Part shown: positions 25,155 through 41,623 of the stretch, piece after piece
Position numbering within the stretch: position 1 is the first letter of the stretch
Layout: each line of letters begins with the position of its first letter
DNA from: a virus
Reading direction: 5' to 3' (one strand)
Virus record (IMG/VR): IMGVR_UViG_3300044511_000013
Coordinates: 1-64,000 of that record
DNA: 64,000 nt
Made by a program: the position numbers and the translations under genes
The notes under the pieces: model-generated
The model's database searches: none
What the model was told of the DNA's origin: nothing
What the model saw: only the letters and a program-made list of their open reading frames with translations

Positions 25155-26153
25155 CTACTGCACGATCGTGTTGAAAAAGATTCCGCAGTCGGCTGCCACA
25201 ACCTTGTGGTCGTACGCCATCTCCATCTCGATCCGGTCGGACTCCAGGTGCTCCATGCGCATCCGCTTCGTGCGGGTGCCCATCGCCCCGGCACCGTAGA
25301 GCCCGCTCCACGAGAACGTGTACCCGGCGCTCGGCATCATGATGCTCGGAGTCGGGTTGACGTAGAGGAGCAACGCCCCCTTGGTGGAGGCGACGTAGCT
25401 CATGGTCGCCGTGGCCGCTTCCTGAGCTGTGTTCTGTGTGGCACGGGCAACGAGCACCCGCTCCACGTTGAACAGCTGCGCCAGGAGCTGAAGCGTCGGG
25501 ATGGCAGGACCTTGGGTGTACTTGATGCGGTCGAGGATGACCGGGTGCACCAGGAGCTTTTGCTCCACGTACGGCGTGATGACGAGCGTGTTCGGCCGGA
25601 AGCCGGTCTGCTCATCCATCCGCATGGCGTAGGTCGTGACATCGTTGATCGGGTCAGACCCGGCACGGTCCCACTGGATGACCTGGTTGGCAGCCGCCGT
25701 GGCAGCACCGGTCACGTCGAGCGGAGCGCCCGTGATCCCGGCCCAAATGCCGGTGGTGAAGTACTTCGTCACCCACAGTTGGTCCTTCCTGAGGAGCATC
25801 TGCTGGGTGCAGAAGATCGTGGCGTCCCGGTCCATGTCGAGCGGGGTGTCCGTGTTGGCTCGGGTCTGGTCGTCCACGTCCTTGTGGACTGCGAACACCC
25901 GACAGAAGTACGTCGGGGTCGAGTCCACAGCCCAGCCGGAACCTGCCGACTCGGTGCTCGGGGCTCGCTCCTGAGCCTGGGTACGGAACCAATACGACTT
26001 GTCGTACGTGAAGTACCGGTTCGACTGCTTGTCGCTCGGGACAACCGGGAACACCTTGTCGGCGATGAACCGGTCTTCTCGCTGGATGTAAGCCACCGAG
26101 ATGTTCGTGAGCGGCACGTTGACGTGAACGTCGCTCCGTGTGGGCTGCGGCAT
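25155..26153 (-). CDS. Major capsid protein
   Basis: 332 residues, full length for an HK97-fold coat protein of the lambda gpE/encapsulin-like branch. It begins DVHVNVPLTNISVAYIQREDRFIADKVFP, in parts, the usual N-arm, and contains PNTLVITPYVEQKLLVHPVILDRIKY (P-domain helix and strand, in parts) and a C-terminal YDHKVVAADCGIFF strand. GGAGCACACG precedes ATG 26153. It follows scaffold and decoration genes in the expected order. No separate N-terminal delta domain, consistent with an external scaffold. Confidence 0.92.
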   Translation of the reverse strand: MPQPTRSDVHVNVPLTNISVAYIQREDRFIADKVFPVVPSDKQSNRYFTYDKSYWFRTQAQERAPSTESAGSGWAVDSTPTYFCRVFAVHKDVDDQTRANTDTPLDMDRDATIFCTQQMLLRKDQLWVTKYFTTGIWAGITGAPLDVTGAATAAANQVIQWDRAGSDPINDVTTYAMRMDEQTGFRPNTLVITPYVEQKLLVHPVILDRIKYTQGPAIPTLQLLAQLFNVERVLVARATQNTAQEAATATMSYVASTKGALLLYVNPTPSIMMPSAGYTFSWSGLYGAGAMGTRTKRMRMEHLESDRIEMEMAYDHKVVAADCGIFFNTIVQ

Positions 26154-27237: not shown

Positions 27238-27271
27238 ACGGTACAGAGGCCGTCGGGCCAAGTGTTGTTCT
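27238..27271 (-). promoter_or_regulatory. Late promoter-like box upstream of scaffold/capsid genes
   Basis: Starts AGAACAACACTTGGCCC and, 28 bases from its start, has TACCGT (27243 to 27238). It overlaps the TAG of the upstream gene. The scaffold ATG is 30 bases after the hexamer with a ribosome binding site between. Strong alignment with the boxes at 49211 and 28318. Confidence 0.5.
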
Positions 27272-28277
27272 ACGAGCCCCTGTAGCCCTCTTGCCACCAT
27301 GCGGGGTTGTCCCGTACCCCGAGGGTGCCCCAGTTGATGTTGCTGTTGGTGCTGTTGCGCCACCACTCGGAGTCGTTGAGGTCCGTTGCCTTCTCGCCCA
27401 GCAACCGGTCCAACAGGCTCTTGCGCTTGGGCTTGGCGGGCTTCGGTGGCTCGGCCATCTTGCGGTCCCTCAGCGCCTTGCGCTTGGCCGCCGACGATGC
27501 TGCCGTGAGGGCGATCGCCGTCTTGTCGGTGTCCCAGTTGGCGTCCGCTGCCTCGACGGTGTTGCCGGTCAGCTTGCGCCAAGCGTCCTGCGAGAAGCCG
27601 TACTGGTTGCGCACACCGTCGCCAGTGTCCTCGGCCAACGCCTTGAACCAATCGGCCGGGGTCTTGTTGTAGCGCTTCGCCTGGTCCCGCCAGTCCGAAC
27701 CCGGCATCCCCTCGTCCGGTGCGTTGTCCCCGCCCAACCCCTTGACGTGCTGATTGCCCCGGAAGGGGTGGCCCGCCTCGCCGCTTGGGCCTGATCCACC
27801 GCCGCCCACCTTGACGTACTGGTTCCCACGGAACGGGTGTCCGGGGAAGTCACCCTTGGTGATCTTGGGCTTGGTGGGGTTCGGGTCGTCCTTCTTGGGA
27901 GGCTCCTCGCCGTCGACCATGAGCTTCTGGCGCAGCTTGGACCGCTTGTCGGTCGGCTTCTTGCGCTCAGGTATCTCCGGCTTCTCGTCCTCGGGCTCCT
28001 CGGCCTCACGGTCCTCGTCGAGTTCGTCCTTCTCGTCCTCGTCGAGGTCGGCTTCCTCGGTCCTGGGCTCGGGCTCGTCCTTCCCTGCAAACGGCTTCTT
28101 TTTGCCCTTGGGCTTCTCCGAACCGAGCGGCCGGTCGACATGGGTGTCGCCCCCGTCGGGTTCGGCCTTGGACACATCCCGCTTGAAGATCATCACTTCG
28201 GCACCGGGCTCAGCGGGTCGGTCGACCAGCGACACCCGACGCAAGCGGACCTTGCGGAGACGAGACACCCGAGCCAT
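27270..28277 (-). CDS. Tagged head protein with VSLVDRPA motif and acidic region
   Basis: 335 residues. The N-terminus LRRVSLVDRPAEPGAEV (residues 12-28) matches the C-terminal strand motif of prohead proteases. Residues 60-135 are highly charged (Glu/Asp/Lys). The GHPFRGNQ tag occurs twice, at 141-157 (KGDFPGHPFRGNQYVKV) and 169-180. A C-terminal part (195-250) has a small helical unit, SLLDRLLGE at 287-295, and a Trp-rich end (WWRNSTN, NPAWWQEGY). It may be part of the protease/scaffold core. ATG 28277 lies 7 bases after TACGCT without a ribosome binding site. Confidence 0.8.
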   Translation of the reverse strand: MARVSRLRKVRLRRVSLVDRPAEPGAEVMIFKRDVSKAEPDGGDTHVDRPLGSEKPKGKKKPFAGKDEPEPRTEEADLDEDEKDELDEDREAEEPEDEKPEIPERKKPTDKRSKLRQKLMVDGEEPPKKDDPNPTKPKITKGDFPGHPFRGNQYVKVGGGGSGPSGEAGHPFRGNQHVKGLGGDNAPDEGMPGSDWRDQAKRYNKTPADWFKALAEDTGDGVRNQYGFSQDAWRKLTGNTVEAADANWDTDKTAIALTAASSAAKRKALRDRKMAEPPKPAKPKRKSLLDRLLGEKATDLNDSEWWRNSTNSNINWGTLGVRDNPAWWQEGYRGS

Positions 28278-28284
28278 CCCGGCC

Positions 28285-28318
28285 AGCGTACGAGTGTGCG
28301 CCGTGCAGGTGTTGCTCT
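28285..28318 (-). promoter_or_regulatory. Late promoter-like box upstream of the 335-aa tagged gene
   Basis: Starts AGAGCAACACCTG at the A of the upstream TAG stop; TACGCT (28290 to 28285) begins 28 bases later. The ATG at 28277 is only 7 bases downstream of the hexamer and has no ribosome binding site, which points to a leaderless mRNA. Confidence 0.5.
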
Positions 28319-29573
28319 AGCCGAGCAAGCGGAACCGGAGCTGATCCCGAGCCTCGTCGTTGCAACCGAGGCACGGTGTGCGCTTCTTCAGGTCCGCCCC
28401 GATGCCCACTCCGGGGATGCCCCAGTCCTCGGTGAACTGGTTGGCCTCCACGAGCACGTCGAGGATGCTGGCGTTCACCCGGCGTATCGGCAACTTGATG
28501 TCGCCTTCCTTGTTGTCCTCAAGGTCCACCGCCACGGCAGCCGCCCAACGGTGGTGGCCGTCGATCACGTAGTTGTCGGCCGACACGAAGATGGAGCCCG
28601 AGCCCAGGTCCATCGAGCCGTCCTTGATGCTCGCCACCATCCCGGCGACGTTGGCACCGTCCAGCTCATTCTGCGTGGCCTTCAGGTAGCTCGCCAGCTC
28701 GGACCCCTCGGACACGTCGATGCCCTTTGACTCCATGTGCTGGACGAACTGTTCGGCGAGGTTGACCCGGCCCTTGTTGTCCCGAGGCTGCTTGTCGGCC
28801 TCAGACCCCTCGACCGGCGTCTTGGTGGTGAACTGCGGCATCTTGAGCCTGGGGATGCCCTTCGATTCGGTGCAGAACAAGTTGGTCCCCGGCACCGACA
28901 CCTTGCACAGGTCGTAGGTGGGGGCCTTCTCGCCCTTGGCCACGGCGTCGTCCACTATCTCCTTGAGCTTGCTCAGCAACGTGCTGACTTCCCGCTTCGA
29001 GGAGAGTTCGACGTGGTACCCCTCGGCCAGCGCCTTGACGGCCTCGTCGACCGTCTTGGCCCGCACGGTCTCGCCCTTCTTGGGCTTGCGGCCTCCGTAC
29101 GCCTCCAGCTCGGCCTTGGCCTCCGCCTTGCCCGGAGACTGGCCTTGCTCCGCCCACCTCGCTGCATCGAGCGTGTCGAGCCGAGGCCGGGAGAGACGGC
29201 TGCGCAACCGGTCCCGGAGGGTGGAGCGCTGCTTCGTCTTCTTCGGGCCGCCGCCACCGATGCCCCCGGTGTGCTGATTGCCCCGGAACTTGTGGCCTAC
29301 GGCCTCGCCCTTGGCCAACTTCTGCTTGCGGTACTCATCGAGCACCTCGTAGTACTGCTCTCGGGTGAAGGCACCCCGGTCGTTGGCAGCGTCCACGGCA
29401 AACCACGTGTGTGACCGATCAACCTCAAAGGCGTAGCCGTCCCAGCCGTTCTGCCAGTTCCGGCGCACCGAGTAGGGCACTTCCTCGTGCCGCACAAAGG
29501 GGTACGAGAGGATGAGCGCCTTCTGCGCTGGCCAGTCGCCCTTCAGATCGAGCAGGTCGGTTTCGAGGCTCAT
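28317..29573 (-). CDS. Tagged head protein with ParB/Srx-like DGHHR domain
   Basis: 418 residues from ATG 29573 (ATGA overlap with the protease/kinase gene). Residues 1-85 form an N-terminal domain rich in aromatics. The tag KGEAVGHKFRGNQHTGG is at 88-104, followed by basic repeats LRDRLRSRL. A middle domain (LPRLKMPQ-type phrase GIPRLKMPQF, then ELASYLKATQNELDGANVAGM) leads into VSADNYVIDGHHRWAAAVAV, the ParB/sulfiredoxin-like DGHHR motif that in relatives binds nucleotide and can act as nuclease or NTPase. Two cysteines in PCLGCND near the C-terminus. Ends LRFRLLG. Likely head-packaged; substrate unknown. Confidence 0.82.
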   Translation of the reverse strand: MSLETDLLDLKGDWPAQKALILSYPFVRHEEVPYSVRRNWQNGWDGYAFEVDRSHTWFAVDAANDRGAFTREQYYEVLDEYRKQKLAKGEAVGHKFRGNQHTGGIGGGGPKKTKQRSTLRDRLRSRLSRPRLDTLDAARWAEQGQSPGKAEAKAELEAYGGRKPKKGETVRAKTVDEAVKALAEGYHVELSSKREVSTLLSKLKEIVDDAVAKGEKAPTYDLCKVSVPGTNLFCTESKGIPRLKMPQFTTKTPVEGSEADKQPRDNKGRVNLAEQFVQHMESKGIDVSEGSELASYLKATQNELDGANVAGMVASIKDGSMDLGSGSIFVSADNYVIDGHHRWAAAVAVDLEDNKEGDIKLPIRRVNASILDVLVEANQFTEDWGIPGVGIGADLKKRTPCLGCNDEARDQLRFRLLG

Positions 29574-31009
29574 CCCGCCGCCACCAGTCGACCACCTTGC
29601 GTGCCATCCCACACCTGCCAGCCTCGATCGGCGAGGTGCTTGACCTCCTCGAAGGCACGCCGGTTCACGCTCGAATACACCGGGTCCCGTGACTCCTCGA
29701 CCACGCTCTCGGGCACATAGCGCCCGCCAAGGGGCGTCAACAGCGAGTCCATGTAGCGCTTCCTGATCCGCTGCTTCGACACCTCCACCGGCACGTCCAT
29801 GAACAACAACCGGAGCTTGTACTTCGGGCCGTTGTCATCGAGGAGCGGCTTGAGCCGCTTGTGAACCTGGCCGGGGTTGCTCATGGTGATGTCCCAGATG
29901 AAGTTCACACCAACCTCGCTGGCTGCGTCAGCGAGCCTCTTGGACAAGTCGGCAGCCTCCTCGTGGTACAGCTCGGCCAGCTCCATGGGCTTGAAGTAGT
30001 CAAGCTCCTCGAACTCATCGGGCAGCCCCGCTCGCTCCGCCAAGATGACCTTGAGGTCGTCGTTGCTGATGTTGAGGTACAGCTCCTTGGGCAGCCCCGC
30101 CCTCGGGTCCTTGAGCATCGTTGACTTCCCGGCACCAGGCAGGCCACCGGTCATGGCCACCTCGGCCTGGCGAGGCACGTTGGCGGCTTCCGCCATGATC
30201 TCGTCGATGATCTCGTCGTGGAGCTTGCGGCGCTCAGCGATGTAGCCACCGGTCTCGGGGTCGGTGTAGTACCCCTTCGTGTCGAGTCCGGCGTCCATGT
30301 AGCGCTTGTTGGTTGCGGTCACGAGTTCGAGGTGATCCAGGACCGCCTCGGTCAGCTCGCCAGTGGCGTCGTAGTGCGCCACGGCCTCCTTCACCCACGG
30401 CTCATCGTTGGTCCACGGTTCGACGGGCCTGCCGGGCTTCGAGGTAACCCGGCTGAGTGCGTGGGATGCGGTCGGTGGGGTCTTCCCCCGTGACGGCACC
30501 TTGACGTACTGATTCCCACGGAAGGGATGACCCTCGAAGTCACCCTTGGCCAGGTCGTCGGCGTCGAGGTACTCACGGTGCCCCGAACCGCCGACCGAGA
30601 AGCCCTTGTAGCGCCCCGACTTGACCTCTTGCCACACCCGGTCGTCCCGGACCTTGAAGCCGACCCACCAGGCCATCGGCAGCGTGCCGTCGGGCACGCC
30701 CATCTTGGCCAACTTCTCCGGTGTGAAGGCCATGGACTCCACCAGGTCGGCCACCGGCACGTCGTAGTGCATCTCGTCGCCGAGGCGTGACTCCAGAGCG
30801 AAGTGGTACGCCATGTCCTCCAGCTCGGCCGGGTCGTCGATGAAGTCGCCTTGCTTGTCGATGCGCAGCGAGCCGTCCGGGTTGGTCGCTCGGTAGGCCC
30901 AGCCGAACACGAGCCTGCGGTCCTCATCGAGCTTGAGCACGTCGTCAGTGGCGTCGGCGAACTCGGTCTCACCGAGCAACCGTTGACGGAGCATGGCCCG
31001 AGATGTCAT
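29570..31009 (-). CDS. XkdF-type prohead protease fused through a tag to a zeta-toxin-like kinase
   Basis: 479 residues with two domains. Residues 32-145 match XkdF-type phage serine proteases: VFGWAYRATNPDG, DKQGDFIDDPAELE, GDEMHYD (His81), LVESMAFTPEKL, WWVGFKV and YKGFSVGGSG (Ser138 as likely nucleophile). The tag spans 155-171. Residues 283-400 are a P-loop kinase of the zeta-toxin/AAA type: TGGLPGAGKST (Walker A, 287-297), LNISNDDLK and IWDITMS. Zeta kinases phosphorylate UDP-sugars or other small molecules. Near its N-terminus it has LRQRLLGE. The protease would cut scaffold and perhaps tags; the kinase could be released by self-cleavage. That step is inference. Confidence 0.88.
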   Translation of the reverse strand: MTSRAMLRQRLLGETEFADATDDVLKLDEDRRLVFGWAYRATNPDGSLRIDKQGDFIDDPAELEDMAYHFALESRLGDEMHYDVPVADLVESMAFTPEKLAKMGVPDGTLPMAWWVGFKVRDDRVWQEVKSGRYKGFSVGGSGHREYLDADDLAKGDFEGHPFRGNQYVKVPSRGKTPPTASHALSRVTSKPGRPVEPWTNDEPWVKEAVAHYDATGELTEAVLDHLELVTATNKRYMDAGLDTKGYYTDPETGGYIAERRKLHDEIIDEIMAEAANVPRQAEVAMTGGLPGAGKSTMLKDPRAGLPKELYLNISNDDLKVILAERAGLPDEFEELDYFKPMELAELYHEEAADLSKRLADAASEVGVNFIWDITMSNPGQVHKRLKPLLDDNGPKYKLRLLFMDVPVEVSKQRIRKRYMDSLLTPLGGRYVPESVVEESRDPVYSSVNRRAFEEVKHLADRGWQVWDGTQGGRLVAAG

Positions 31010-31953
31010 TGGTCCAGTATCGCCTTGCGGAGCCGGTCACGGGCGCTCTTGGGGCCGATGTGAAACACCCGGCCGAGCGACGCATGGTGCGAGCCGGTCA
31101 CGTCGTAGGCGTTGTCTGCGTCCGAGCTGGCCTGGGCCATGGCAGGTCGCTGCCGCCGTGCCTTGAGCAGTCGGACGAGCGCAGCCAGCCGCTTGCGCAG
31201 CTCCTCGGGCAGTAGCAGCACCTTCTGTGGGCCGAAGTAGCCCCGCTGGATCAGGAAGGCGTTCTGGCCCCGCAGCTCGGTGGCCGCAGCCTTGGCGGCC
31301 TCGGTGCTGAACATCGACAAGTGAGCCTGGTAGGCGGCCTCCTCACCGTGCCGGTCGAACGCACGGCCGGTCCCGAGGTGGCCGAAGGCATCGTGCACCG
31401 CCCGGAACTTGTCATTCTGTTCGTTGGTGAGGTACGGGTGACCCCCGGTGGCCTCCGTCTTCAGAATCTTGAGCCGGTTGTGGCTAAGGAAGTCATCGAG
31501 CATCTCGGCGTAGTTCGCATACGGGTCGTCGTCGGTGTACTCGATCTTGATGCCGAGCTGATCGGTCAGGATCGAATACTGCTTGTCCAGCTCGCCGATC
31601 AGTGCCTCGTAGGCCCGCCGAACCTCTGCATCCGGCACGGCGTCCTCGGGGGCCTCCTCGTAGAACTTGGCGATGGCCTCCCGCCGCTCCGGCGTGATCG
31701 CCCGTGTAGCGCTCCAGTCACGCTGATCGCCGTGGAACTTCTTGAGGGCCTTGACCGGCGTGGCCATGACCATCTCGACGCCATCGTGCGACGTGATGGA
31801 TCGGACCTGGCCCGAGACCTTGACGTACTGATTCCCCCGGAAGGGATGACCCTCGTAGTCGCCCTTCTTGATCCGTGCGAGTTGCCGCTCGTCGTCGTCC
31901 TCACTCGTGTCGAACGGCCACACGCTGATCTCGTCCAGCCCGAGGTACTTCAT
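31006..31953 (-). CDS. Tagged head protein with conserved VHDxFGH domain
   Basis: 315 residues; ATG 31953 overlaps the upstream stop (ATGA). The tag KGDYEGHPFRGNQYVKV is at 30-46. Residues 170-235 contain FRAVHDAFGHLGTG (His187, His192), a GEEAAYQAH motif (Glu204, Glu205, His211) and TELRGQNAFL, a set I recall from phage head-fusion and polyvalent proteins without a described function; the His/Glu pattern suggests metal binding. A C-terminal helical part is basic (LRKRLAALVRLLKARRQR) and ends DRLRKAILDQ. Unknown activity. Confidence 0.8.
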   Translation of the reverse strand: MKYLGLDEISVWPFDTSEDDDERQLARIKKGDYEGHPFRGNQYVKVSGQVRSITSHDGVEMVMATPVKALKKFHGDQRDWSATRAITPERREAIAKFYEEAPEDAVPDAEVRRAYEALIGELDKQYSILTDQLGIKIEYTDDDPYANYAEMLDDFLSHNRLKILKTEATGGHPYLTNEQNDKFRAVHDAFGHLGTGRAFDRHGEEAAYQAHLSMFSTEAAKAAATELRGQNAFLIQRGYFGPQKVLLLPEELRKRLAALVRLLKARRQRPAMAQASSDADNAYDVTGSHHASLGRVFHIGPKSARDRLRKAILDQ

Positions 31954-34900
31954 GCGCTGCCTCCCGGTGCGAGTGTGGCGTCCAGGTCGGTCTCCAGCTC
32001 CTTCTCCAGGTACCAATGCCAGGAGTTCAGGCCGGTACTGACATGCCGCCACTTCCAGCCCTCCGGTGGAGGCGTCTTGGGGTGGAAGCCAGCAACCTTC
32101 TCGCTGGTGCTAGTGACGATCATCTCGTGCACCAGGCTCTTGTACGCCATCTTGAGCTTGTGGGCCACATTGAGCGGGCCTTGGAACACCGCCTTGTCGT
32201 ACTCGTTTAGCGCATACCCCATCGTGATGGCCGCCTGGGCTTCTACGGAATCGGAGGACCAGCCGCCCGTCTCGGTGAAGTGCTCCGAGGCTACCAAGGC
32301 CGGGGGCAGCAGAGCTTTCGTGGCAGGGATGCGCTCCAGGTACCACTGGTTCTGGACTATGCCGCTGCCGAGGTACCGCCACCTCCAGCCCTTCGGTGTC
32401 GCCACCTTGGTCAGATCGGGTCCGGCTGTGGTCCAGGAGGCGTGAAGTTCGTTGTAGGCATTCCACGCCGCCGCCAGCGTCATGCCCCAGTTGTCGTAGA
32501 GGTAGTTGGGGTCGACGGACCAGGCATCCGATGCCGTGTCCCATGAGCTGTAGCCGAACGTGGCCGCCGCTTTCGCCTTGGCCCCCCCGACCTTCCATCC
32601 TGACTGGGTGAGCTGACCGGTCAATGTGAGGTAGTGCGGAAGTTCGTGGGGCTTCGCAGCGCTCGGACCACTGGGATCGGGCTTCTCGGCAACCGGCCCG
32701 TCGGGGTCGTAGTCGAGGAACCACTGCCTCGCCACCAGGCCCGTACCGATGTGACGCCACGCCCAGCCTTTCGGCGTGACGAGCTGGGCAACGGCGTCTT
32801 GCTTGATCCAGCCGCCCGGCGAGTCCTCCGAGAGGTTCGTCATGGCGGTGTAGGCATCTGCAATCTCATTCGGGCTCACGTTTCCGCTCCCGTCCAGCGG
32901 TGCGTTGGGCGTGAACACCTCACTCCAGTCGGCCCAGCCGAGCGTGATCGCAGCCTTGTCCTCGTCCTCGATGGTGTGAAGCCAACCGATCTCGTCCGGG
33001 TAATCCACGTCGTCTGCCACCCACTGCCAGGCACCCGATTCGGTGATCCACTTGGGCACCTTGTCGGCAGGACCTGGCAGAAGCTGAGGATGGTCGGGTT
33101 GATCGGGTTGATCTATCGGAACCGGGTTCTCGGTGGCGATCTTGAGCCCGTAGTTATACGCCATGGCTCTGTGGGCATCTCCCGCCATGACCGACCAAGC
33201 AAACCCCGGTGGGGCGATCGGCAAGGGGTTCCCGGCCACGACGGCAACGGGGTGCACGAACTCCCCCTCCACTGTGCTGCCGTCGCCCCAGGTGATCCAG
33301 CTCCCGGCAACCGGTTGGCTCAGAGTGCTGCCGTAGCCCTCCTGGTAGTAGCTACTCACGAAGTCTTTGTGGACTTCGGAGAACTGGTTGGCGAACTCGG
33401 CGATGCTCTTGGGCGGCGAGTACGTCTTCCCGTTCCACTCGATCCCCAGCTCCTGAGCCAGCGGCTTCTCCGGGGCCTCCGGGGTCTCGGTCGAAGCCGC
33501 CAGCGCCGCTCCCATCACCGTGTCGGGGTCGGCCAACCGCTCGGGTATCTTCTGCGCCAGCCACTTGCTGTGGGAGATGTAGGGCTTGCTGGAGGTGGGC
33601 AAGGCCACGAACTCAGGACTGGTGGTCTGGACCGTGCGCCCAGGACCGGTCGAGAGGTTCGTGGGCACCAGCACCCAGTCTTGCGGCATCGCCCGGTAGT
33701 CGTCCAATGAGGCCCATTCGGTCCTGGCCCACTTGTACCCCTCGGGCGGATCGAAGTCGTACGGGTGGCCCAAGGTGTCCAGCTCGGTCGGGTGGATCAC
33801 AAAGTCGGTCCCCGGATAGGTCAAGGTGGACGCAGGCAGGTCGACTCCGGGCTTCAGGTCGGGCTTCTGAATCCACATCTTGGTACCCAACTCGTAGGTC
33901 TTGGGGACCTTGAGCTGCCATCGCATTCCTTGCACCGGCAGCAGGTTCGGTATGTCACTGCTGCACTGCTGCCACCTGTTGTCGGCGACCAGCTCGGGGT
34001 TGCGAGCCACGCCCTTCTCGGCCTGGGACCACGCTGGCGCACGGATACCCGAGGAGAGAAGGGGCCTGCTGGCCAAGCGGCTGGCCTGCGCCTCCACCGC
34101 CGACGATTGGGTCACGCCCTTGAAGGGGTCGATCACACCGACCTGGCGGATGTCGACAACCCACGCACCTGAGAACTCGCTGTTCGAGTCGTGCCTCGGC
34201 GTGATCGCAGTGACCTCGTAGCGACCGCCCGTGGCCCACTCGTGTTCGGAGACGAATGCGGGGGACTGGCCGACATCCTTCCAGTGCTGATTGAACTTGA
34301 ACGCCTTGGCTCCCGGAGCCAGCCGGAAGATGATCGAGTGCGGGTTGTTGCCCGCATAGCTACGAGCCATGGACTTCGATGTCGTGAAGCCCCAGGCAGG
34401 CACGTCGATGACCGCACCGGGAAACAGGTTGGCCTTCTCCCGGAGCGTGTCGAGGTCGGTCACGTCCCCGATCTTCAGCTTGGCCTTGCCCCGGTACAAC
34501 GGCTGCGTCGTCGGAGCGCTCACCTTGATCCGCTCCAGCATGGCCAAGGCCGGGGCCAGGTCAACCTGGTCGTACCTGAACTGGCGTACGACCGGCTTGT
34601 AGCCGGTGACCGCCTCGATGGCCTTGCGGATGGCGGTCGGGCTGCCTTGCCAACTGTGGATGGCGTAGTCGAGTGCCTTCCCTTCCGACCCGCCCCACTG
34701 CGTCTCTTGCAGCAACGCCCGGTACTGCCCCAGGCTGAGCGGCATCCCGGTCTTGTGGCTGGGGCCGTAGACCTTGAGCTTCTTAGCGGCCGCCTTCTTG
34801 GCTGCCTTCTTGGCAGTGGCCGCCCACTGGGTGAGCATGTTGCCGTCATCGAGCTGATCCCGGCCACCTCGTGAAGGCACCTTGACGTACTGATTGCCCC

Positions 34901-34958
34901 GGAACGGGTGTCCTTCGTAGTCGCCCTTCTCGAACTCGACGACCTCGGTCAGTTCCAC
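31950..34958 (-). CDS. Tagged ADP-ribosyltransferase with Trp-rich C-terminal repeats
   Basis: 1002 residues. The tag is at 11-27, next to the N-terminus. A Lys/Ala helix (43-62) precedes an R-S-E class ADP-ribosyltransferase at about 75-260: PLYRG (Arg156), WGFTTSKSMARSYAG (Thr-Thr-Ser 192-194) and SEHEW (Glu238, Glu240) supply the three NAD-binding/catalytic blocks. The 740-residue rest has repeated modules with TPKGWAWRHIGTGLVARQW, TPKGWRWRYLGSGIVQNQW and PPEGWKWRHVSTGL, each followed by about 60-90 residues. By analogy with T4 Alt, it could modify host RNA polymerase or other proteins after ejection; the target is unknown. Start GTG 34958. Confidence 0.85.
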   Translation of the reverse strand: MELTEVVEFEKGDYEGHPFRGNQYVKVPSRGGRDQLDDGNMLTQWAATAKKAAKKAAAKKLKVYGPSHKTGMPLSLGQYRALLQETQWGGSEGKALDYAIHSWQGSPTAIRKAIEAVTGYKPVVRQFRYDQVDLAPALAMLERIKVSAPTTQPLYRGKAKLKIGDVTDLDTLREKANLFPGAVIDVPAWGFTTSKSMARSYAGNNPHSIIFRLAPGAKAFKFNQHWKDVGQSPAFVSEHEWATGGRYEVTAITPRHDSNSEFSGAWVVDIRQVGVIDPFKGVTQSSAVEAQASRLASRPLLSSGIRAPAWSQAEKGVARNPELVADNRWQQCSSDIPNLLPVQGMRWQLKVPKTYELGTKMWIQKPDLKPGVDLPASTLTYPGTDFVIHPTELDTLGHPYDFDPPEGYKWARTEWASLDDYRAMPQDWVLVPTNLSTGPGRTVQTTSPEFVALPTSSKPYISHSKWLAQKIPERLADPDTVMGAALAASTETPEAPEKPLAQELGIEWNGKTYSPPKSIAEFANQFSEVHKDFVSSYYQEGYGSTLSQPVAGSWITWGDGSTVEGEFVHPVAVVAGNPLPIAPPGFAWSVMAGDAHRAMAYNYGLKIATENPVPIDQPDQPDHPQLLPGPADKVPKWITESGAWQWVADDVDYPDEIGWLHTIEDEDKAAITLGWADWSEVFTPNAPLDGSGNVSPNEIADAYTAMTNLSEDSPGGWIKQDAVAQLVTPKGWAWRHIGTGLVARQWFLDYDPDGPVAEKPDPSGPSAAKPHELPHYLTLTGQLTQSGWKVGGAKAKAAATFGYSSWDTASDAWSVDPNYLYDNWGMTLAAAWNAYNELHASWTTAGPDLTKVATPKGWRWRYLGSGIVQNQWYLERIPATKALLPPALVASEHFTETGGWSSDSVEAQAAITMGYALNEYDKAVFQGPLNVAHKLKMAYKSLVHEMIVTSTSEKVAGFHPKTPPPEGWKWRHVSTGLNSWHWYLEKELETDLDATLAPGGSA

Positions 34959-34962
34959 CAGG

Positions 34963-36972
34963 TCATTCTGGCAGGAGCCGGTCCCGAAGTGACGCTCTGC
35001 GCTCGGCGTCCTCGACGGTCTCGTCGTCCAGTGCAGGGTCGTGCGGATACCCGGAACAGGACTGCTCGAACTCGACGATGGCGATGATCTTCGGCTTCTC
35101 AGCCTTGGTCACGGGGGCATCGTGCTCGGCCATGGCCACCACCTTCGTCACCATGTTCATCATGTACGGGTTGAGCTTGCGTTCCTTGCCCTTGGTGACC
35201 TTGTACTTGTCGGCGTACATGTAGGCGAAGGTCTCGGCGAAGTGCTCCGCCCCGGAATCCTTGGCGTACTCGCTTGGGGTCGGGGCTGAATGAGCACCGG
35301 GGAACCCCAGCGACTGGTCGAGGCCCTCGTGCAGCACCGTGCCGTTGAACTGCCACAGCTCTCCGGCCTCGGGCAGCTTGAGGTTCTCGGTCAGCCACCG
35401 CTGCCTGGCTCGGTTGTAGATGGCGTGCCCCATCTCATGCAAGAGGATGCCCGACAACCCCGAGTCGGTGGCCAGCCAACCCGTCTTCATGCTCTGGTCG
35501 CTGGAGGCCGGGGAGTGCTGTGAATTGAGCCCGATCCCGTGCACAAAGCGGTACTTGGAGTCGGCTTGCTGAGCTATGCCCATCGTGGTCGCCCCGCCAC
35601 ATTCTGCGCCGAGAGTGGCGTTGTACTCCCCGAGCCGGAAGGCATCGAGGCCCCGGAGCGTCTCGGGGAAGTCCTGAGCGACCTTGCGCAGTGTCTTGGC
35701 CATCGCCTCGATGTCGGCTTCAGTGACCCCTTCGGTGGCCCCGGTCACTTGCCACCCAGGAGGCCATTTGGAGGGATCGGATTTGAGCTGAACCTTGGCG
35801 TTGGGCATGTAGCGCTGGAACTCCTGCGTCAGGCGTTTCGTCGTCGGTGAGTCGCCGCCGCTCACGTGATCAAAGAACAACTGGTTGACGTACTTCGGGT
35901 GCTTGGCCGTCTGGTGGAAGCCATGGACCCCCGGCATCGGGTTGTTCCCGGCGCTCGGCACCTTGATGTACTGGTTGCCTCTGAAGGGGTGACCGGGGTA
36001 GTCGCCCTTGATGAGCCACTCGGACGGCTTGGTCTTGCGTGCCCGCCGCCGTGCCCGCTCTGCGATGAAGTTCTCCCGCCAGGCATCGAGCGACTCTCGG
36101 GCTCGGTCCTCGGCCTCCCGCCGTTGTTCCTGGTAGGTCTTCTGGCGTGGCTTCCGCCGTCTGCCGAACAACGGGTCGATGTCCCAGTTGGGTCCCAAGC
36201 CCATCGACGGCACCTTGAGCTGCCGTGACTCCAGCACCATGCGCCAGCGTGATGCGTTCGATGGGCTGATCCCGGCCTTGAGCCAAGCCCGCTCCACCTC
36301 GTCCACGTCGACATCGAGTATCCGCCTCAGCGAACTGAGTGCCTGATCGTCGGTCATCCGGCCGTACATGAGCTTGCCTTGATTGGACGTGCGCATCGTC
36401 TCGGGCTCAACCCACGGCCCGATGCTGAAGCTGTCCTTGGTACCGCCCATCGCCCGGAAGGCCATCGCCCCACCGGACTCGATGCGCACCGGCATCCCGG
36501 CCTCGTCCACGAGCGTGTTGTCTTGCTCCAGCCCGTGCACGTCCCAGTGCGAGAGCCAAGCGTCGATCCCGAAGTCCCGAGCGGCCCGCTCCTGGAGCGT
36601 GGCGTTGCTGGCCCACTCGGAGGCGCTCGCCTGGCGGAGTCCCTCGATCTTCTTGCTGATGATGACCGGACGGCCCGAGTCGTCGTGGTCGAACCTCGTC
36701 AGAGGGAAGTGCACCCCCGCCATGCGGTAGACGATGCCCCCGGCGATCTCATTCTGCACGTGGTCTTCGCTCTTGCCCGGCTTGACCAGGTAGCGCTGGC
36801 CCTCGGCGTCCTCGTACCACTGGCCGCCTTGGCTGCCGAGCGGACCCTTGACCTTTTTCATCCGCTTGATCGTGTCGTAGCCGGGAATGCCGCCCGTGTG
36901 CTGATTGCCACGGAACGGGTGCCCCTCGGCTTCGCCCTTGAGCAACCGGTAGCGCAGGCCAACCCTTGTCAT
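34963..36972 (-). CDS. Tagged kinase-like domain fused to HExGH metallopeptidase
   Basis: 669 residues; ATG 36972 overlaps the MuF gene stop. Tag copy one is at 12-28. Residues 45-215 resemble a HipA/PI-kinase-like fold: GGQWYEDAEGQRYLVKPG, HVQNEIAGGIVYRMAG, then HWDVHGLEQDNTLVDEAG and VRIESGGAMAFRA; the usual metal-binding Asp before the glycines is Glu165. Tag copy two is at 322-342. Residues 355-625 are a metallopeptidase with LLHEMGHAIYNRA (zinc His512, His516, catalytic Glu513) and AEHFAETFAYMYADKY (Glu576 or Glu580 as third ligand), paralogous to the MuF gene's domain. Ends LRDRLLPE. Confidence 0.83.
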   Translation of the reverse strand: MTRVGLRYRLLKGEAEGHPFRGNQHTGGIPGYDTIKRMKKVKGPLGSQGGQWYEDAEGQRYLVKPGKSEDHVQNEIAGGIVYRMAGVHFPLTRFDHDDSGRPVIISKKIEGLRQASASEWASNATLQERAARDFGIDAWLSHWDVHGLEQDNTLVDEAGMPVRIESGGAMAFRAMGGTKDSFSIGPWVEPETMRTSNQGKLMYGRMTDDQALSSLRRILDVDVDEVERAWLKAGISPSNASRWRMVLESRQLKVPSMGLGPNWDIDPLFGRRRKPRQKTYQEQRREAEDRARESLDAWRENFIAERARRRARKTKPSEWLIKGDYPGHPFRGNQYIKVPSAGNNPMPGVHGFHQTAKHPKYVNQLFFDHVSGGDSPTTKRLTQEFQRYMPNAKVQLKSDPSKWPPGWQVTGATEGVTEADIEAMAKTLRKVAQDFPETLRGLDAFRLGEYNATLGAECGGATTMGIAQQADSKYRFVHGIGLNSQHSPASSDQSMKTGWLATDSGLSGILLHEMGHAIYNRARQRWLTENLKLPEAGELWQFNGTVLHEGLDQSLGFPGAHSAPTPSEYAKDSGAEHFAETFAYMYADKYKVTKGKERKLNPYMMNMVTKVVAMAEHDAPVTKAEKPKIIAIVEFEQSCSGYPHDPALDDETVEDAERRASLRDRLLPE

Positions 36973-39620
36973 GTGCCGACCTCCAGCAAGCGGCTGCGCA
37001 GGTCCGTTCGGGCCTTGGCAACCCACCACTCGCCCGGCTTGTCCAACTCCACCACGGCATCGACAAGCTCGAATGGGATGGGCTGCCGGTTCTTGGCGTA
37101 CTCGTCGGTGGCGAAGTACCACTCGGCGTTGGGATCGACTTTGATGCGCACGATCACAGCATCGGTCGCCTTCGTCTTCTCCATCGGGAAGTAGAAGGCC
37201 CCGGTGCTCCGGGTCGAAGCCACCGTACCCTCGTTGCCGATGTTCTCCTCGCCCTTGGTCTGAATGAAGCCACGGGCCTGGGCCTCGTCGTACTCCCGCC
37301 GATCCATCACTCTGAACACGTGCTGAAGCTGCCGGGGAGGCCCGACCTTGACGAACGGCCTTAGGCCGTAACCCGGTCGCATCTCGCTCTGGTCGTAATC
37401 GGCGACGGTCTTGTCCATGGGCATCGGTGTCCAGTACTGGTACTCCAAGCCCATGCGGCCGACGATGTGGCCCTCGTCATCCCAGGCCACGACCATCCTG
37501 GCCTCGATCTCACCTTCCTTGAGGTGAACGCCGCCGCCCACCTTGTTGGGTGCGTACCGCTCCGGGTAGAACCGCTTGGGGTCTTGGAGCAACTTGGCCT
37601 CGTCGGTGAGGATGGCGTCCCAGGCCGCCGAGGTATTGCCTCCCGGCACGCTGATCTTTTTCGGCTGGTGGACGGCCGTCGGTTGGCTCCGGCTGCCCAC
37701 CTTGACGTACTGGTTGCCCCGGAAGGGGTGGCCCTCGAAGTCGCCCTTCTCGATGAGCGCAGGATCGGCCGGGTACCCGGAACAAGACTGCTGAACCTCG
37801 ATGATGGCCCCGATCTCCAGCTCGCTCTTGACAACCTTGTCGTACCGGAGAGGTGCGTCGTGCTCGGCCAAGGCGACCACCTCGGTCACGAAGCTCACCA
37901 TGTCCGGGTTGAGCTGACGGTCCTTGCCCTTCCTGACGCCGTACTTGTCGGCGAACATGTACGCAAACGTCTCGGCGAAGTGCTCATCGAAGTGCTCTTT
38001 GGCGTACCGACTCGGGTAGACGGGCGACCAGAGGTTGTCGACTCCCATCACCCACCGGAACGTGGTGTTGGTAACGAGACCCTCGAACTGGAAGCGGTCC
38101 CCCGGTTCCCTCGGCTTCGTGAACCCGTTGGTGAGCCAGCCGTGCTTGGCCCGGTTGTACACAGCGTGCCCCATCTCGTGCAGGAACGTGCCCGAGAGCC
38201 CCGAGTCGGTGGTGAGGTAACCCGAGTCCACGCTCGCATCGTGAAGGCTGGGCTTGGACGCTGCATTGAACCCGATCCCGTGGATGAAACGGACCTTGGT
38301 GGAGTTGGCAAGTTGAGCGATGGCGAACGTCGTAGCCCCACCAGCCGTCTCGCCAAGCTCGCCGCCGTAGTACCCGAAACGAAATGCGTCGAGTCCCCGC
38401 AATGTCTCGGGAAAGTCCTGAGCAACCTTGCGCACCGTCTTGGCCAGCGCCTCGATGTCTGCCTCGGAGACTCCTCGGCCGGGGTCCCCCGGCATGAGCG
38501 AGACCTTGGCATTCGGCATGTAGCGCCGGAACTCCTTCTCCAGACGGTCCATCGTCGGCGTGATAGGGGGGATCGGGTCGCTGATGAACACGTGCGATAG
38601 GTACGCCGAAACCGGATGGTCCTGATAGCCCAACTGCCTTGCCGGGTCCGGTGTCCCGGCACTGGGCACCTTGACGTATTGGTTCCCACGGAAGGGATGA
38701 CCTGGGTAGTCGCCCTTCTGTAGCTCCTCGATGAAGCTGGCGGCTGCCGGTGCGAACACGAGCCCCATCGTGCAGCGGCACTGGGGGTGCGCAGCCGGTC
38801 GCTCGAACACGCCGTACTTGCCCTCGAAGCTCTTGCCGATCGCCGCCAGCCTGCCGTGCAGGTCGGCGCATATCTCGCAGCGCTTCTCGTCCTTGGCGGT
38901 GATCCACACCCGCTTCGTGAACTCGGGGTCGGGGTCGATCATCCCGGCGTCCACTCCCGCTACCCAAGCGTCATCGAGACCGAGGTTCTGAGCGTGCATG
39001 ATCTCGGTCCTGGCGATGTTCCACGCCCGGTAGGTGCGGAGCCGTGTCGAGTAGGCCGCCACCTGAGCCCGGCGTGCCGCAGTGTTGACGCCCCGCTTGC
39101 GCAGCCCGGCATCGAAGTTGGCGACCGCCTGAGCGTGCTGGGGGAGCAACCCCACGAGACGCCGGATGAGCGGCACGGCGTCGTCGATGGCCCCGCCGCC
39201 CCGGACGATCGTGTCGAGGACCTGGCGAATAGACTCCTGGGTCGGCGATGTCGTCGCCACCAACCGGTGCGAAAGCTGCGACATGGACTCAACCGCCCAC
39301 GGGTTCGTGGCGTTGAAGGTCAACTTGGCCGGAACCATCGCCGAGACAGCCGCAGAGCCCGCCTGAGCGGCGTGGAGGTACGCCTGGGCCACCAGAGCCC
39401 GGATTTGCTCCAGGTCCAGCCACAGGCCCTCTAGCGCTGAGGCACTGGGATAGACGCCCCGCTCCATCTCGGTGAGGACCTTGCGCAGCGCATCGGAGCG
39501 ATTGAGCCGCCCCACTGAGCGCAGGAAGGCACGGGCGATCTGAGGCTCAAGCTGATTCGAGACGAGCCGCAGCACCCCCGCCAGCCTGGCCCCGTCGATC
39601 TGGACGTTGGCACCGGCCAC
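36969..39620 (-). CDS. MuF-like head morphogenesis protein fused to metallopeptidase and a third, ART-like domain
   Basis: 883 residues. Residues 150-290 are a Phage_Mu_F domain (ARTEIMHAQNLG, KRVWITAKDEKRCEICADLHG, AAHPQCRCTMGLV with Cys248, Cys251, Cys281 and Cys283), which binds portal inside the head. Tag one (302-322) leads to a metallopeptidase domain with FLHEMGHAVYNRA (His481, Glu482, His485) and DEHFAETFAYMFADKY. Tag two (625-641) leads to a C-terminal domain with VFRVMDRREYDEAQARGF, GTVASTRSTGAFYF and a PIPFELVDAV strand, resembling small ADP-ribosyltransferase-like folds. Ends LRSRLLEVGT. Start GTG 39620, 4 bases after the portal-side gene's neighbour. MuF plus enzyme fusions are known as phage-borne toxins. 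Confidence 0.85.
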   Translation of the reverse strand: MAGANVQIDGARLAGVLRLVSNQLEPQIARAFLRSVGRLNRSDALRKVLTEMERGVYPSASALEGLWLDLEQIRALVAQAYLHAAQAGSAAVSAMVPAKLTFNATNPWAVESMSQLSHRLVATTSPTQESIRQVLDTIVRGGGAIDDAVPLIRRLVGLLPQHAQAVANFDAGLRKRGVNTAARRAQVAAYSTRLRTYRAWNIARTEIMHAQNLGLDDAWVAGVDAGMIDPDPEFTKRVWITAKDEKRCEICADLHGRLAAIGKSFEGKYGVFERPAAHPQCRCTMGLVFAPAAASFIEELQKGDYPGHPFRGNQYVKVPSAGTPDPARQLGYQDHPVSAYLSHVFISDPIPPITPTMDRLEKEFRRYMPNAKVSLMPGDPGRGVSEADIEALAKTVRKVAQDFPETLRGLDAFRFGYYGGELGETAGGATTFAIAQLANSTKVRFIHGIGFNAASKPSLHDASVDSGYLTTDSGLSGTFLHEMGHAVYNRAKHGWLTNGFTKPREPGDRFQFEGLVTNTTFRWVMGVDNLWSPVYPSRYAKEHFDEHFAETFAYMFADKYGVRKGKDRQLNPDMVSFVTEVVALAEHDAPLRYDKVVKSELEIGAIIEVQQSCSGYPADPALIEKGDFEGHPFRGNQYVKVGSRSQPTAVHQPKKISVPGGNTSAAWDAILTDEAKLLQDPKRFYPERYAPNKVGGGVHLKEGEIEARMVVAWDDEGHIVGRMGLEYQYWTPMPMDKTVADYDQSEMRPGYGLRPFVKVGPPRQLQHVFRVMDRREYDEAQARGFIQTKGEENIGNEGTVASTRSTGAFYFPMEKTKATDAVIVRIKVDPNAEWYFATDEYAKNRQPIPFELVDAVVELDKPGEWWVAKARTDLRSRLLEVGT

Positions 39621-39623
39621 GGG

Positions 39624-41297
39624 TCACCGCTGCTTCTTGGCAGGCACCGGACGCCTGCCCGGAGGGGTAGGCGGAGGCGTCGGTGGAGGCATGGGCGGAG
39701 GTGCGTTGCCCATCGGCCCCGGAGGTGGCTGCTGCTTGTCCTTCTCGTCGTCGTCCTTCTTGCCCTTCTCGTCCTCGTCCTCGTCGTCGGGCAACTGGTA
39801 CCCGGCACCGGCCAGCATCCCGGCCCCGGTCTCCATGCCGCCCTCCGCCATGAGCATCTGCTGATCCCGCATCTGCGATTCCAGCTCGGCCGACTCGATC
39901 TCGTTCTGGCGGGCCAGCTCGGCCATCTCCTCTCGGTGGGCCAGGTCCTCGTCGGTCATCTCCGGGAGCTTGGCCGCTGCCCGCAGGTACTTCTCCAGCT
40001 CGGGGTCCGGGAAGAACGGCACGCCCGCTGCACTGAGCTTGCTGATGAAGTCGGAGAGCTGGGTCAGGTCCGGCTGCTCGATGTCGCCAGGCACGATCTC
40101 AGGGTGGTCCTCCAGCTCCATGCCGTTGACTTCGAGCAAGCGTGGGATGGCGTGGCGGTTGATGACCCCGGCGATCGTCTTGAGCAAGCTGCCGAGGCTC
40201 AAGCTGAAGATGTTGGTCTTGTCGGAACTGAGGGCGTAGCTGCCCACGTCCTTGTGCCCGAGAAGCACGAAGTCGGCCAGCACGGTCATGGCGATGTGCT
40301 CGGCGTAGCGCCGGATGATCGGGTCGGTCGGAAACTGGCGGGTCCCCGCACTGGCGAGCAACTGGAACTCGTACACCAGGTTGTTGTTCTGGTCGTAGAC
40401 CCGAGGGAAGACCACGCCCTCCTGCTGATCCCGGCGCACGTTCTTGACCAGCTTCTCGATCGACGTGCGCATGGCCACGTCGCCCGCCGCTGCATCGGGA
40501 CTCAAGATGGCCGGGTCCACGTAGGCGATCGGCAGACCGGCCAGGTCCCGCTCGACGCCGATGGCCTCGATCTCCTCGATGCGCTTCTTGAAGTACCACG
40601 GCCGGTAGGCGTTGCGCAGGATCGACCGGCCCTCGGGACTGTTCTTGTACGTCGTGGTGCGGAACAGGAGTGCCTTCTCGATGGGGATGTAGACCAGGTT
40701 GTTCCTGGGGATGGCGTACTGCCAGAAGCCCCGGATGCCGCCGTGGTCATCGAAGACCCACTTGGCGAGCGTGTCCTGTGCCCGCAGTGCGAACTTGCGC
40801 CATGCGATCCGGTCGTCGTCGTAGCGAGACCGAAGTTGGGGCGTCTCGGCCTGCGGACCCCTGCGCAGCTTGTAGACGATCTCGAAGAAGCTCCAGCCGT
40901 ACGGCAGCATCGACATGACCTCGGAGATGAAGTCCTCCCAGGTGTGGCTCATGTCGTCGATGCACTGCTGGAGGAACTCGACCCGGCCGTCGTCCTCCTT
41001 GCCGGGGGACTCGACCCGCCACTCGACCTGGCGCACGAGCGTGTCGATCGCCTGGAGGATGGCCCCGATGATCGGGTCGTTGTCCCGCATCTCCCGGTAG
41101 ACCTGGACCCCACGGGTCCCTTGGAGGTGCTGAAGGAACTCCTCGTTGACGTACCCGGACCATCTGCGCAGGCCCGACTGGCCCAGTTCGAGGTAGCCGA
41201 GGCCGTCGATCTCGACAACAACCCCGTCGGGAATCTCCGGTGCAGCGAAGGGGTGCTGGCCGTTGGGGCCGTTGGGGAGGTTGTCGACGAAGGTCAT
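39624..41297 (-). CDS. Portal protein
   Basis: 557 residues. Twelve copies form the ring through which DNA is packaged. Conserved portal phrases are present: YREMRDNDPIIGAILQAIDTLVRQVEW, in parts, MLPYGWSFFEIVYKLR, PEGRSILRNAYRPWYFKK, and a wing/stem region with FVLLGHKDVGSYALSSDKTNIF, in parts (DUF935/gp29-like style). The last 90 residues are acidic then Pro-rich (PPPMPPPTPPPTPP) and probably disordered. ATG 41297 overlaps the upstream stop (ATGA). Confidence 0.9.
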   Translation of the reverse strand: MTFVDNLPNGPNGQHPFAAPEIPDGVVVEIDGLGYLELGQSGLRRWSGYVNEEFLQHLQGTRGVQVYREMRDNDPIIGAILQAIDTLVRQVEWRVESPGKEDDGRVEFLQQCIDDMSHTWEDFISEVMSMLPYGWSFFEIVYKLRRGPQAETPQLRSRYDDDRIAWRKFALRAQDTLAKWVFDDHGGIRGFWQYAIPRNNLVYIPIEKALLFRTTTYKNSPEGRSILRNAYRPWYFKKRIEEIEAIGVERDLAGLPIAYVDPAILSPDAAAGDVAMRTSIEKLVKNVRRDQQEGVVFPRVYDQNNNLVYEFQLLASAGTRQFPTDPIIRRYAEHIAMTVLADFVLLGHKDVGSYALSSDKTNIFSLSLGSLLKTIAGVINRHAIPRLLEVNGMELEDHPEIVPGDIEQPDLTQLSDFISKLSAAGVPFFPDPELEKYLRAAAKLPEMTDEDLAHREEMAELARQNEIESAELESQMRDQQMLMAEGGMETGAGMLAGAGYQLPDDEDEDEKGKKDDDEKDKQQPPPGPMGNAPPPMPPPTPPPTPPGRRPVPAKKQR

Positions 41298-41623
41298 GCC
41301 AACGCCGCCATGATCTGGATGACGTTGTGGCCGTCATTCGGGAAGGTCGCCGTCTTGGTGTCGGGGAAGGTCACTTCCCACTCGGCGTAGTAGTGCCCGG
41401 CTGTGTCGACATCGTTGGCCGCCCAGTCGTAGCGCACCGTGTGCAGCGTGGCGTCCACGATGGCAGCAACCTGCCGGTTGACCTTGATGACGTTGGTAAG
41501 CACGTTGGTCATGGTGAACCGCACCGTGCTACCGGTGAGAGACCACGTGACCCCCGAGCTATCGCTCAGAGTGGCGTAGATGCTCGGGGACCGATCCCCG
41601 ACCTTGAGCGAGAAGTCGGCCAT
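41294..41623 (-). CDS. BppU-like N-terminal Ig domain protein (109 aa)
   Basis: FSLKVGDRSPSIYATLSDS, WSLTGSTVRFTMTN and HYYAEWEVTFPDTKTATFP, in order, follow the pattern of the small Ig-like domain at the N-terminus of baseplate upper proteins (BppU) and of stand-alone neck/fibre proteins. ATG 41623 overlaps the repeat-gene stop (TGATG); a TTG one codon earlier is possible. Probably a virion surface adaptor. Confidence 0.72.
   Translation of the reverse strand: MADFSLKVGDRSPSIYATLSDSSGVTWSLTGSTVRFTMTNVLTNVIKVNRQVAAIVDATLHTVRYDWAANDVDTAGHYYAEWEVTFPDTKTATFPNDGHNVIQIMAALA

What the first reader, a model, noticed from the sequence alone, without database searches (positions are those of the whole stretch)
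31950..34958. ADP-ribosyltransferase with an N-terminal tag and a long Trp-rich repeat tail
Arg156, TTS 192-194 and EHE 238-240 give a plausible R-S-E transferase. The 740-residue tail contains modules marked by PKGWxWRxxGTGL...W phrases with no family I know. Large packaged transferases that modify host proteins on entry are known (T4 Alt), but this architecture is unfamiliar.
Basis: partly seen in the sequence, partly recalled or inferred. Interest (0 to 1): 0.75.

Follow-up and report, generated by a model that had tools for sequence, protein, structure and literature searches.

The report
Tagged, head-packaged phage ADP-ribosyltransferase
A virus of bacteria makes an enzyme that probably rides inside the virus head into the new host cell and chemically marks host proteins, and it carries a short peptide tag that many other uncultured viruses put on very different cargo proteins, which looks like an undescribed packaging or cutting label.

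Summary
The 1002-aa ORF is real (GTG 34958, 4 nt behind the upstream stop). Residues 61-290 most likely form an R-S-E ADP-ribosyltransferase (ART): Arg156, TTS192-194 and EHE238-240 fall into register with 21 phage ARTs, and a model built on that alignment matches only ARTs among its 50 listed PDB hits. The sequence alone is an orphan, so this rests partly on a helped model. The tail holds three real Trp-rich repeats (residues 634-992), not a repeated 740 residues. The tag is the larger result. KGDYEGHPFRGNQYVKV-type tags occur 10 times in 7 consecutive genes between portal and major capsid protein, on MuF, XkdF protease, zeta kinase, HExxH and ART domains. The same peptide recurs in at least 116 stretches of uncultured-virus DNA but in only 7 in-frame places in 257 Gb of prokaryote genomes. 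It sits beside portal/MuF/protease genes and between domains. Unrelated cargo in one phage can share a ~20-aa leader plus the tag, like T4 capsid-targeting propeptides. Two further tag families exist. No paper in the held library contains the tag strings searched. Best reading: a co-ejected host-modifying ART bearing a portable package-and-process tag; packaging and cleavage are inferred.

The parts
31950..34958 (-). tagged ART protein, 1002 aa, GTG start
   Evidence: the ORF listing; starts 4 nt after the stop of the upstream tagged gene (sequence)
34878..34928 (-). tag KGDYEGHPFRGNQYVKV, residues 11-27, behind a 10-residue leader
34134..34736 (-). ADP-ribosyltransferase domain, about residues 75-275
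   Evidence: alignment A8 with 21 phage ARTs, model, Foldseek and VIA-align
34491..34493 (-). Arg156 of LYRG (R of R-S-E)
   Evidence: on strand 92-97 of the model
34377..34385 (-). TTS 192-194 (S block of R-S-E)
   Evidence: between strand 129-132 and helix 135-142 of the model
34239..34247 (-). EHE 238-240 (ExE block)
   Evidence: at strand 180-182 of the model
33060..34103 (-). middle region, residues 286-633, no relative and no supported repeat
32688..33059 (-). Trp-rich repeat 1 of 3, residues 634-757
32319..32651 (-). Trp-rich repeat 2 of 3, residues 770-880
31983..32309 (-). Trp-rich repeat 3 of 3, residues 884-992
36969..39620 (-). MuF head protein + tag (38679-38702) + HExxH region + tag (37710-37733) + C-terminal domain
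   Evidence: Phage_Mu_F 3.4e-6, just below its cut-off, phrog_3517 3.4e-25, tags
34963..37122 (-). two-tag protein (36901-36924, 35971-35994) with a C-terminal HExxH region
   Evidence: weak, below-cutoff metallopeptidase-type matches
31006..32052 (-). tagged protein of phrog_3170 (tag core 31828-31851)
29570..31009 (-). XkdF-type protease (24-144) + tag (160-167; 30509-30532) + zeta-toxin-like kinase (283-450)
   Evidence: PF14550 1.4e-18, PF06414 1.9e-16
28317..29612 (-). tagged protein (GHKFRGNQ, 29274-29297), weak ParB-like match
27270..28277 (-). protein with two tags 23 residues apart (27819-27842, 27750-27773)
39624..41297 (-). portal protein, upstream border of the tagged block
   Evidence: PF06074 6.2e-36, phrog_113 2.4e-85
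25155..26153 (-). major capsid protein, downstream border
   Evidence: phrog_1005 3.1e-83

Best explanation
The gene encodes an ADP-ribosyltransferase effector made late, with the head proteins, packed inside the capsid and ejected with the DNA, where it would mono-ADP-ribosylate host protein (arginine is likely from the ExE motif; the target is unknown). The GHPFRGNQ tag behind a short leader is a portable signal of the head-assembly pathway. It marks a segment as virion cargo and most likely serves as the exposed junction at which leaders and head domains are separated from effector domains, much as T4 uses N-terminal targeting propeptides. Shown: the ORF, the motif register, the tag in 7 contiguous head-module genes, its spread and gene context, leader sharing by unrelated cargo in other phages. 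Inferred: catalytic activity, packaging, ejection, cleavage, target, and any binding role of the Trp-rich repeats.
For: ART: MAFFT aligns LYRG, GFTTS and EHE with the R, STS and ExE blocks of 21 viral ARTs. The model on that alignment has pLDDT 62.2, pTM 0.58, about 73 over P0001 residues 71-220. Foldseek gives 64 PDB matches at E<=0.001 and the 50 listed are all ARTs; VIA-align Z is up to 8.8. Of 2150 ORFs of 150 aa or more, 4 match an R-STS-ExE pattern: three independent profile ARTs and this one; 0 of 10750 shuffled ORFs match (pattern chosen after seeing this sequence). Packaging: all 10 tags of the window lie between portal and major capsid genes. Over 111 non-redundant neighbours of tagged ORFs the leading PHROGs are portal (8, 5, 4 members), head morphogenesis (7, 6, 5) and head maturation protease (5, 5, 5); 111 ORFs at least four genes away are led by tail, major head and connector families with at most 3 members each. 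The best cultured-phage match is an 'internal head protein' of Xanthomonas phage Rb1 with a DarA_N domain; P1 DarA is found in the virion head by mass spectrometry (PMC9024508, passages). Signal: 11 of 30 same-locus pairs share a leader without body similarity (bodies cut at 300 aa; 10 if the L112 pair, related beyond that, is removed), against 15 of 300 different-locus pairs. In the window, codon positions 1-2 of the tags are 96% identical and position 3 only 54%, as codon usage alone predicts (53%), so the peptide is what is kept. Tags lie a median of 258 aa apart.
Against: No virion proteome, cleavage or enzyme data. The ART model leans on ARTs in its alignment; alone it failed, and sequence-only tests are weak (hhalign P 0.0085, probability 4.7%; 16 of 2000 shuffles reach its score). 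Of 30 same-locus leader pairs, 17 share neither leader nor body. The tag also sits in portal and MuF proteins that need no targeting signal. I know of no protease that cuts at KG[DE]xxGHPFRGNQ.
Confidence: 0.62

Rival explanations
1. The tag is a docking motif only: it binds a scaffold, portal or chaperone partner and recruits each segment, and is never cut.
For: High invariance of the core residues, and repeated copies in one chain (up to 8 plus 2 of another tag family), fit multivalent binding.
Against: It would be redundant in portal and MuF fusions, and it lies at junctions with Gly-rich sequence behind it, as cut sites often do.
Confidence: 0.25
2. The tag is a neutral flexible linker or a recombination joint left by domain shuffling.
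For: It sits between domains and is followed by glycines.
Against: The core residues are nearly invariant while third codon positions are as varied as codon usage predicts; a linker or DNA joint would not behave so.
Confidence: 0.07
3. The domain is a degenerate or non-catalytic ART, used for binding.
For: TTS in place of STS, two residues missing after EHE in the alignment, and no close relative.
Against: All three catalytic blocks are kept in a sequence that has otherwise diverged beyond recognition.
Confidence: 0.15
4. The domain is not an ART; the motifs are coincidence and the model copies its alignment.
For: Single-sequence model uninformative; no Pfam match.
Against: Three blocks in order and spacing, plus helix and strand pattern.
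Confidence: 0.12

Closest known systems
T4 Alt and the internal proteins IPI-IPIII with capsid-targeting propeptides (PMC9026906, passages)
   Same: ART or small cargo encoded with head genes; a short N-terminal leader shared by cargo with different bodies; in T4 packaged, cut by the head protease and ejected.
   Different: Fixed GHPFRGNQ tag, also used inside proteins and behind portal, MuF and protease domains; no sequence match to Alt.
Polyvalent proteins (Iyer et al. 2017, PMC5512222, passages)
   Same: Other tagged ORFs carry the same domain set: ART-PolyVal, DarA, PBECR, zeta kinase, InPase, LPD3, MuF, portal.
   Different: No shared tag was found in that paper ('signature motif', 'linker' and 'GHPF' each 0 occurrences). 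In the window the effectors are spread over several separate tagged genes.
MuF polymorphic toxins (PMC5576092, passages)
   Same: MuF head domain joined to ART, peptidase and other effectors; the nearby gene 36969-39620 is MuF + tag + HExxH region + tag.
   Different: The ART protein itself has no MuF domain. 'motif', 'linker' and 'cleav' occur 0 times in that paper.
P1 DarA/DarB internal head proteins (PMC9024508, passages)
   Same: The N-terminal 30 residues of DarB suffice for capsid targeting; a tagged Rb1 protein has a DarA_N domain.
   Different: The tag in the Rb1 protein is internal (about residue 763 of the open frame), not N-terminal.

Membership tests
R-S-E ADP-ribosyltransferases (C3/VIP2/ADPrib_exo_Tox-like) | Arg, S-T-S and ExE blocks in order and register | tested here: met
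   the second block is TTS.
R-S-E ADP-ribosyltransferases (C3/VIP2/ADPrib_exo_Tox-like) | Pfam or PHROG profile match | tested here: not met
   0 families. This is a test of detectable similarity, not of the fold.
R-S-E ADP-ribosyltransferases (C3/VIP2/ADPrib_exo_Tox-like) | split-beta ART fold | tested here: inconclusive
   Model on an ART alignment matches ARTs, but the single-sequence model failed.
R-S-E ADP-ribosyltransferases (C3/VIP2/ADPrib_exo_Tox-like) | NAD-dependent transferase activity | not testable with these tools
   Needs protein.
T4 Alt family | sequence relation to Alt | tested here: not met
   No PHROG or Pfam match of any kind; a very distant relation is not excluded.
T4-type capsid-targeting propeptides | short N-terminal leader shared by unrelated cargo | tested here: met
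   For the tag system in other phages, 10-11 of 30 same-locus pairs; not shown for the window's own 10-residue leader.
T4-type capsid-targeting propeptides | cut by the head protease | not testable with these tools
   An XkdF-type protease is encoded two genes downstream; no cleavage data.
Polyvalent proteins | virion-gene context and polyvalent domain repertoire | tested here: met
   Between portal and capsid genes; tagged ORFs of other phages carry the repertoire.
MuF polymorphic toxins | N-terminal MuF domain in the same protein | tested here: not met
   No MuF match in this ORF.

The most novel reading that the evidence does not exclude
Uncultured tailed phages use a small set of conserved peptide tags (GHPFRGNQ, GNFGHAGRPGEVGGS, GKHDQKTHG) as an interchangeable code that marks any domain as capsid cargo and is cut during head maturation, turning head proteins and effector chains into free injected enzymes.
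Probability: 0.4. Interest if true: 0.88.

Novelty: new variant of a known kind. Interest (0 to 1): 0.74.

Why it matters
Which phage proteins travel inside the head is known for few model phages. A tag that can be read from sequence alone would let anyone list probable injected cargo across uncultured viruses, including proteins with no known domain, and gives a concrete peptide whose deletion or transfer to a reporter tests capsid targeting and processing.

Tried and rejected
No close relative of the protein was found: INPHARED tblastn none; viral contigs only a near-identical contig of the same phage, L001/L155; ART part alone none; PDB phmmer none. Single-sequence AlphaFold2 gave pLDDT 35.8. 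Tag queries in plasmids found none and in INPHARED only Rb1 and one weak faecal record (E 4, 52% identity); short queries and BLAST's filter make these counts lower bounds. The tag as a DNA element was rejected on third-position diversity. The stretches 325-440 and 500-620 as members of the repeat family were rejected. None of four tag-bearing peptides (two with tag 1, one each with tags 2 and 3) matches Pfam even at E 10. Papers: no hit for GHPFRGNQ or for six tag fragments. Of 158 non-redundant tag-1 ORFs, reduced from 204, all were scanned (A1 48, A2 110). Of 89 non-redundant tag-2 ORFs 79 were scanned; the 7 longest and 3 shortest were left out. Tag-3 ORFs were not scanned for domains. Of 21 pattern places in genome contigs only 7 are in-frame tags in long ORFs; about 15 chance hits are expected from the pattern's degeneracy alone (my arithmetic at uniform base composition, no call). 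The pattern also admits Ser for Arg.
Full report
What is there. The window is part of a 72,437-base virus record. On its - strand a run of seven genes lies between the portal gene (39624-41297; PF06074, phrog_113) and the major capsid gene (25155-26153; phrog_1005). All seven carry GHPFRGNQ (one as GHKFRGNQ), ten copies in all; the exact pattern occurs nowhere else in the whole record. The reported ORF is one of them: GTG at 34958, 1002 aa, starting 4 nt after the upstream stop, with a 10-residue leader and then KGDYEGHPFRGNQYVKV. Its neighbours are MuF + tag + HExxH region + tag + C-terminal domain; a two-tag protein with HExxH; phrog_3170 + tag; XkdF-type protease + tag + zeta kinase; and two more tagged proteins.

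The ART domain. By sequence the domain is an orphan: no Pfam, PHROG, INPHARED or PDB match. Profile tests against phage ARTs are weak but favourable: hhalign P 0.0085 with probability 4.7%; the iterated profile gives 2.9 bits, reached by 16 of 2000 shuffles. A strict R-STS-ExE pattern, written after seeing this sequence, matches 4 of 2150 ORFs: three profile ARTs and this ORF; 0 of 10750 shuffles match. It misses most profile ARTs, so it is specific rather than sensitive. Aligned with 21 viral ARTs the three blocks fall into register. A single-sequence model failed (pLDDT 35.8). The model on the 22-row alignment reaches 62.2, about 73 over P0001 residues 71-220, with R156 on a strand, TTS between strand and helix, and EHE at the next strand. 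Its 50 listed Foldseek matches and its 50 VIA-align rows are ARTs of the C3, iota-type, VIP2, ExoS and related kinds; the best VIA-align row has Z 8.8, rmsd 3.7 over 161 residues. Because the alignment was made of ARTs this is consistency, not independent proof. An ExE rather than QxE motif points to arginine as acceptor (general knowledge of ARTs, not tested).

The tail. Residues 634-757, 770-880 and 884-992 are repeats by a held-out test: 31.6-42.5 bits against at most 12.2 in 2000 shuffles. The stretches 325-440 and 500-620 are not members; they resemble each other only slightly (22 and 14 of 2000 shuffles reach the score). No relative was found in viral contigs except the same phage. Its role is unknown; binding to the target or to DNA is a guess.

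The tag is widespread and viral. Over 227 copies the consensus is [VLI]-x-K-G-[DE]-x-x-G-H-P-F-[RH]-G-N-Q-[YWH]-T-x-G followed by glycines; G, H, F, G, N and Q are 99-100% (the regular expression used there fixed or restricted several of these). In 257 Gb of bacterial and archaeal genomes the pattern occurs in 21 stretches, of which 7 are in-frame tags in long ORFs, in Ideonella, Rhodocyclaceae, Hydromonas, Comamonadaceae and three Akkermansia-group bins. In cultured phages the only good match is the 'internal head protein' of Xanthomonas phage Rb1, which has InPase and DarA_N domains.

What it is attached to. Of 158 non-redundant tagged ORFs (all scanned), 7 match MuF, 6 the XkdF protease family, 5 zeta kinase, 4 ADPrib_exo_Tox, 3 ART-PolyVal, 3 DarA_N, 3 a portal family, and 1-2 each PBECR1, InPase, DarA_C, topoisomerase IB, GNAT, HipA and LPD3; most match nothing. 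Two Akkermansia-group ORFs read portal - tag - PBECR nuclease. In the 7 tag-1 ORFs with an XkdF match at E below 1e-3 the tag always follows the protease domain; MuF may lie before or after the tag; no tag falls inside a matched MuF or XkdF segment in the rows listed. In 55 multi-tag ORFs (tags 1 and 2) the 92 intervals have a median of 258 aa, quartiles 165 and 329, only one under 60: beads of domain size.

Gene context. The nearest non-tag neighbours (111 non-redundant) are led by portal, MuF-type and head-protease PHROGs. 111 ORFs at least four genes away, from the same loci, are led by major head, major tail and connector families with at most 3 members each. The control is drawn from stretches around tags, so it too is rich in structural genes, and only the top 25 families of each scan are shown.

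Signal-like behaviour. In locus L014 three tagged proteins with unrelated bodies begin with nearly the same leader (MxGFTTNELLYPLTK or close to it) before the tag; L093 has three more of another kind. Counted over all 30 same-locus pairs of N-terminally tagged ORFs, 11 share the leader without body similarity, 1 shares both, 1 shares the body only and 17 share neither; of 300 sampled different-locus pairs 15 share the leader only. One of the 11 (L112) has related bodies when the full bodies are compared. This is the anatomy of T4 internal proteins, whose 10-19-residue propeptides target them to the core and are then cut off, with IPII and IPIII sharing one propeptide (PMC9026906, passages), and recalls P1 DarB, whose first 30 residues suffice for capsid targeting (PMC9024508, passages).

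More than one tag. A second tag, GGPGSGNFGHAGRPGEVGGS, occurs in 89 stretches, 137 copies in 108 ORFs of 80 loci. Five ORFs carry both tags, and one open frame of 3054 codons (L195) holds eight of the first and two of the second. Of 79 scanned, 9 match MuF, 6 and 3 two portal families, 6 ADPrib_exo_Tox, 4 ART-PolyVal, 4 zeta kinase, 3 topoisomerase IB. No paper in the held library contains the strings searched.

How it most likely works. ARTs fused to or encoded beside head proteins are an established theme: about 44% of phage ARTs in one survey lie in contexts suggesting head packaging (PMC9503650, passages). The new part is the tag. Targeting alone does not explain why portal and MuF proteins, which enter the head anyway, carry it at the border to the effector domain; a cutting or release site explains both that and the N-terminal leaders. 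I put packaging-plus-processing first and docking-only second. Neither step has been seen.

Noticed in passing
L195:679-9840 (- strand): One open frame of 3054 codons with eight copies of tag 1 and two of tag 2 and a MuF-like region in the middle: apparently a chain of tagged domains.
   Followed up: partly
L040, L070, L082, L168-L244: Second tag family GGxGSGNFGHAGRPGxxGGS on the same domain repertoire (MuF, portal, ARTs, zeta kinase).
   Followed up: partly
L047, L086 and loci: Third tag family KHxxGKHDQKTHGxWA, at least 120 stretches; domains of its ORFs not scanned.
   Followed up: partly
window 27954-28070 versus L001 near 5184: The near-identical contig L001 lacks about 117 nt (39 codons, in frame) of an acidic linker in the double-tag gene 27270-28277.
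   Followed up: no
window 41623-42945 (- strand): 440-aa protein made of roughly 20-residue repeats (such as KAKAFTLASEVDLAL) a little upstream of the portal gene; no function known to me.
   Followed up: no
window 36972-37763 (- strand): C-terminal part behind the second tag of the MuF protein has no Pfam match; by eye it might be another ART-like domain.
   Followed up: no
L151, L153 (Akkermansia-group bins): Portal_Mu protein, then the tag, then a PBECR-type nuclease domain in one chain; possible prophages in a culturable genus.
   Followed up: partly
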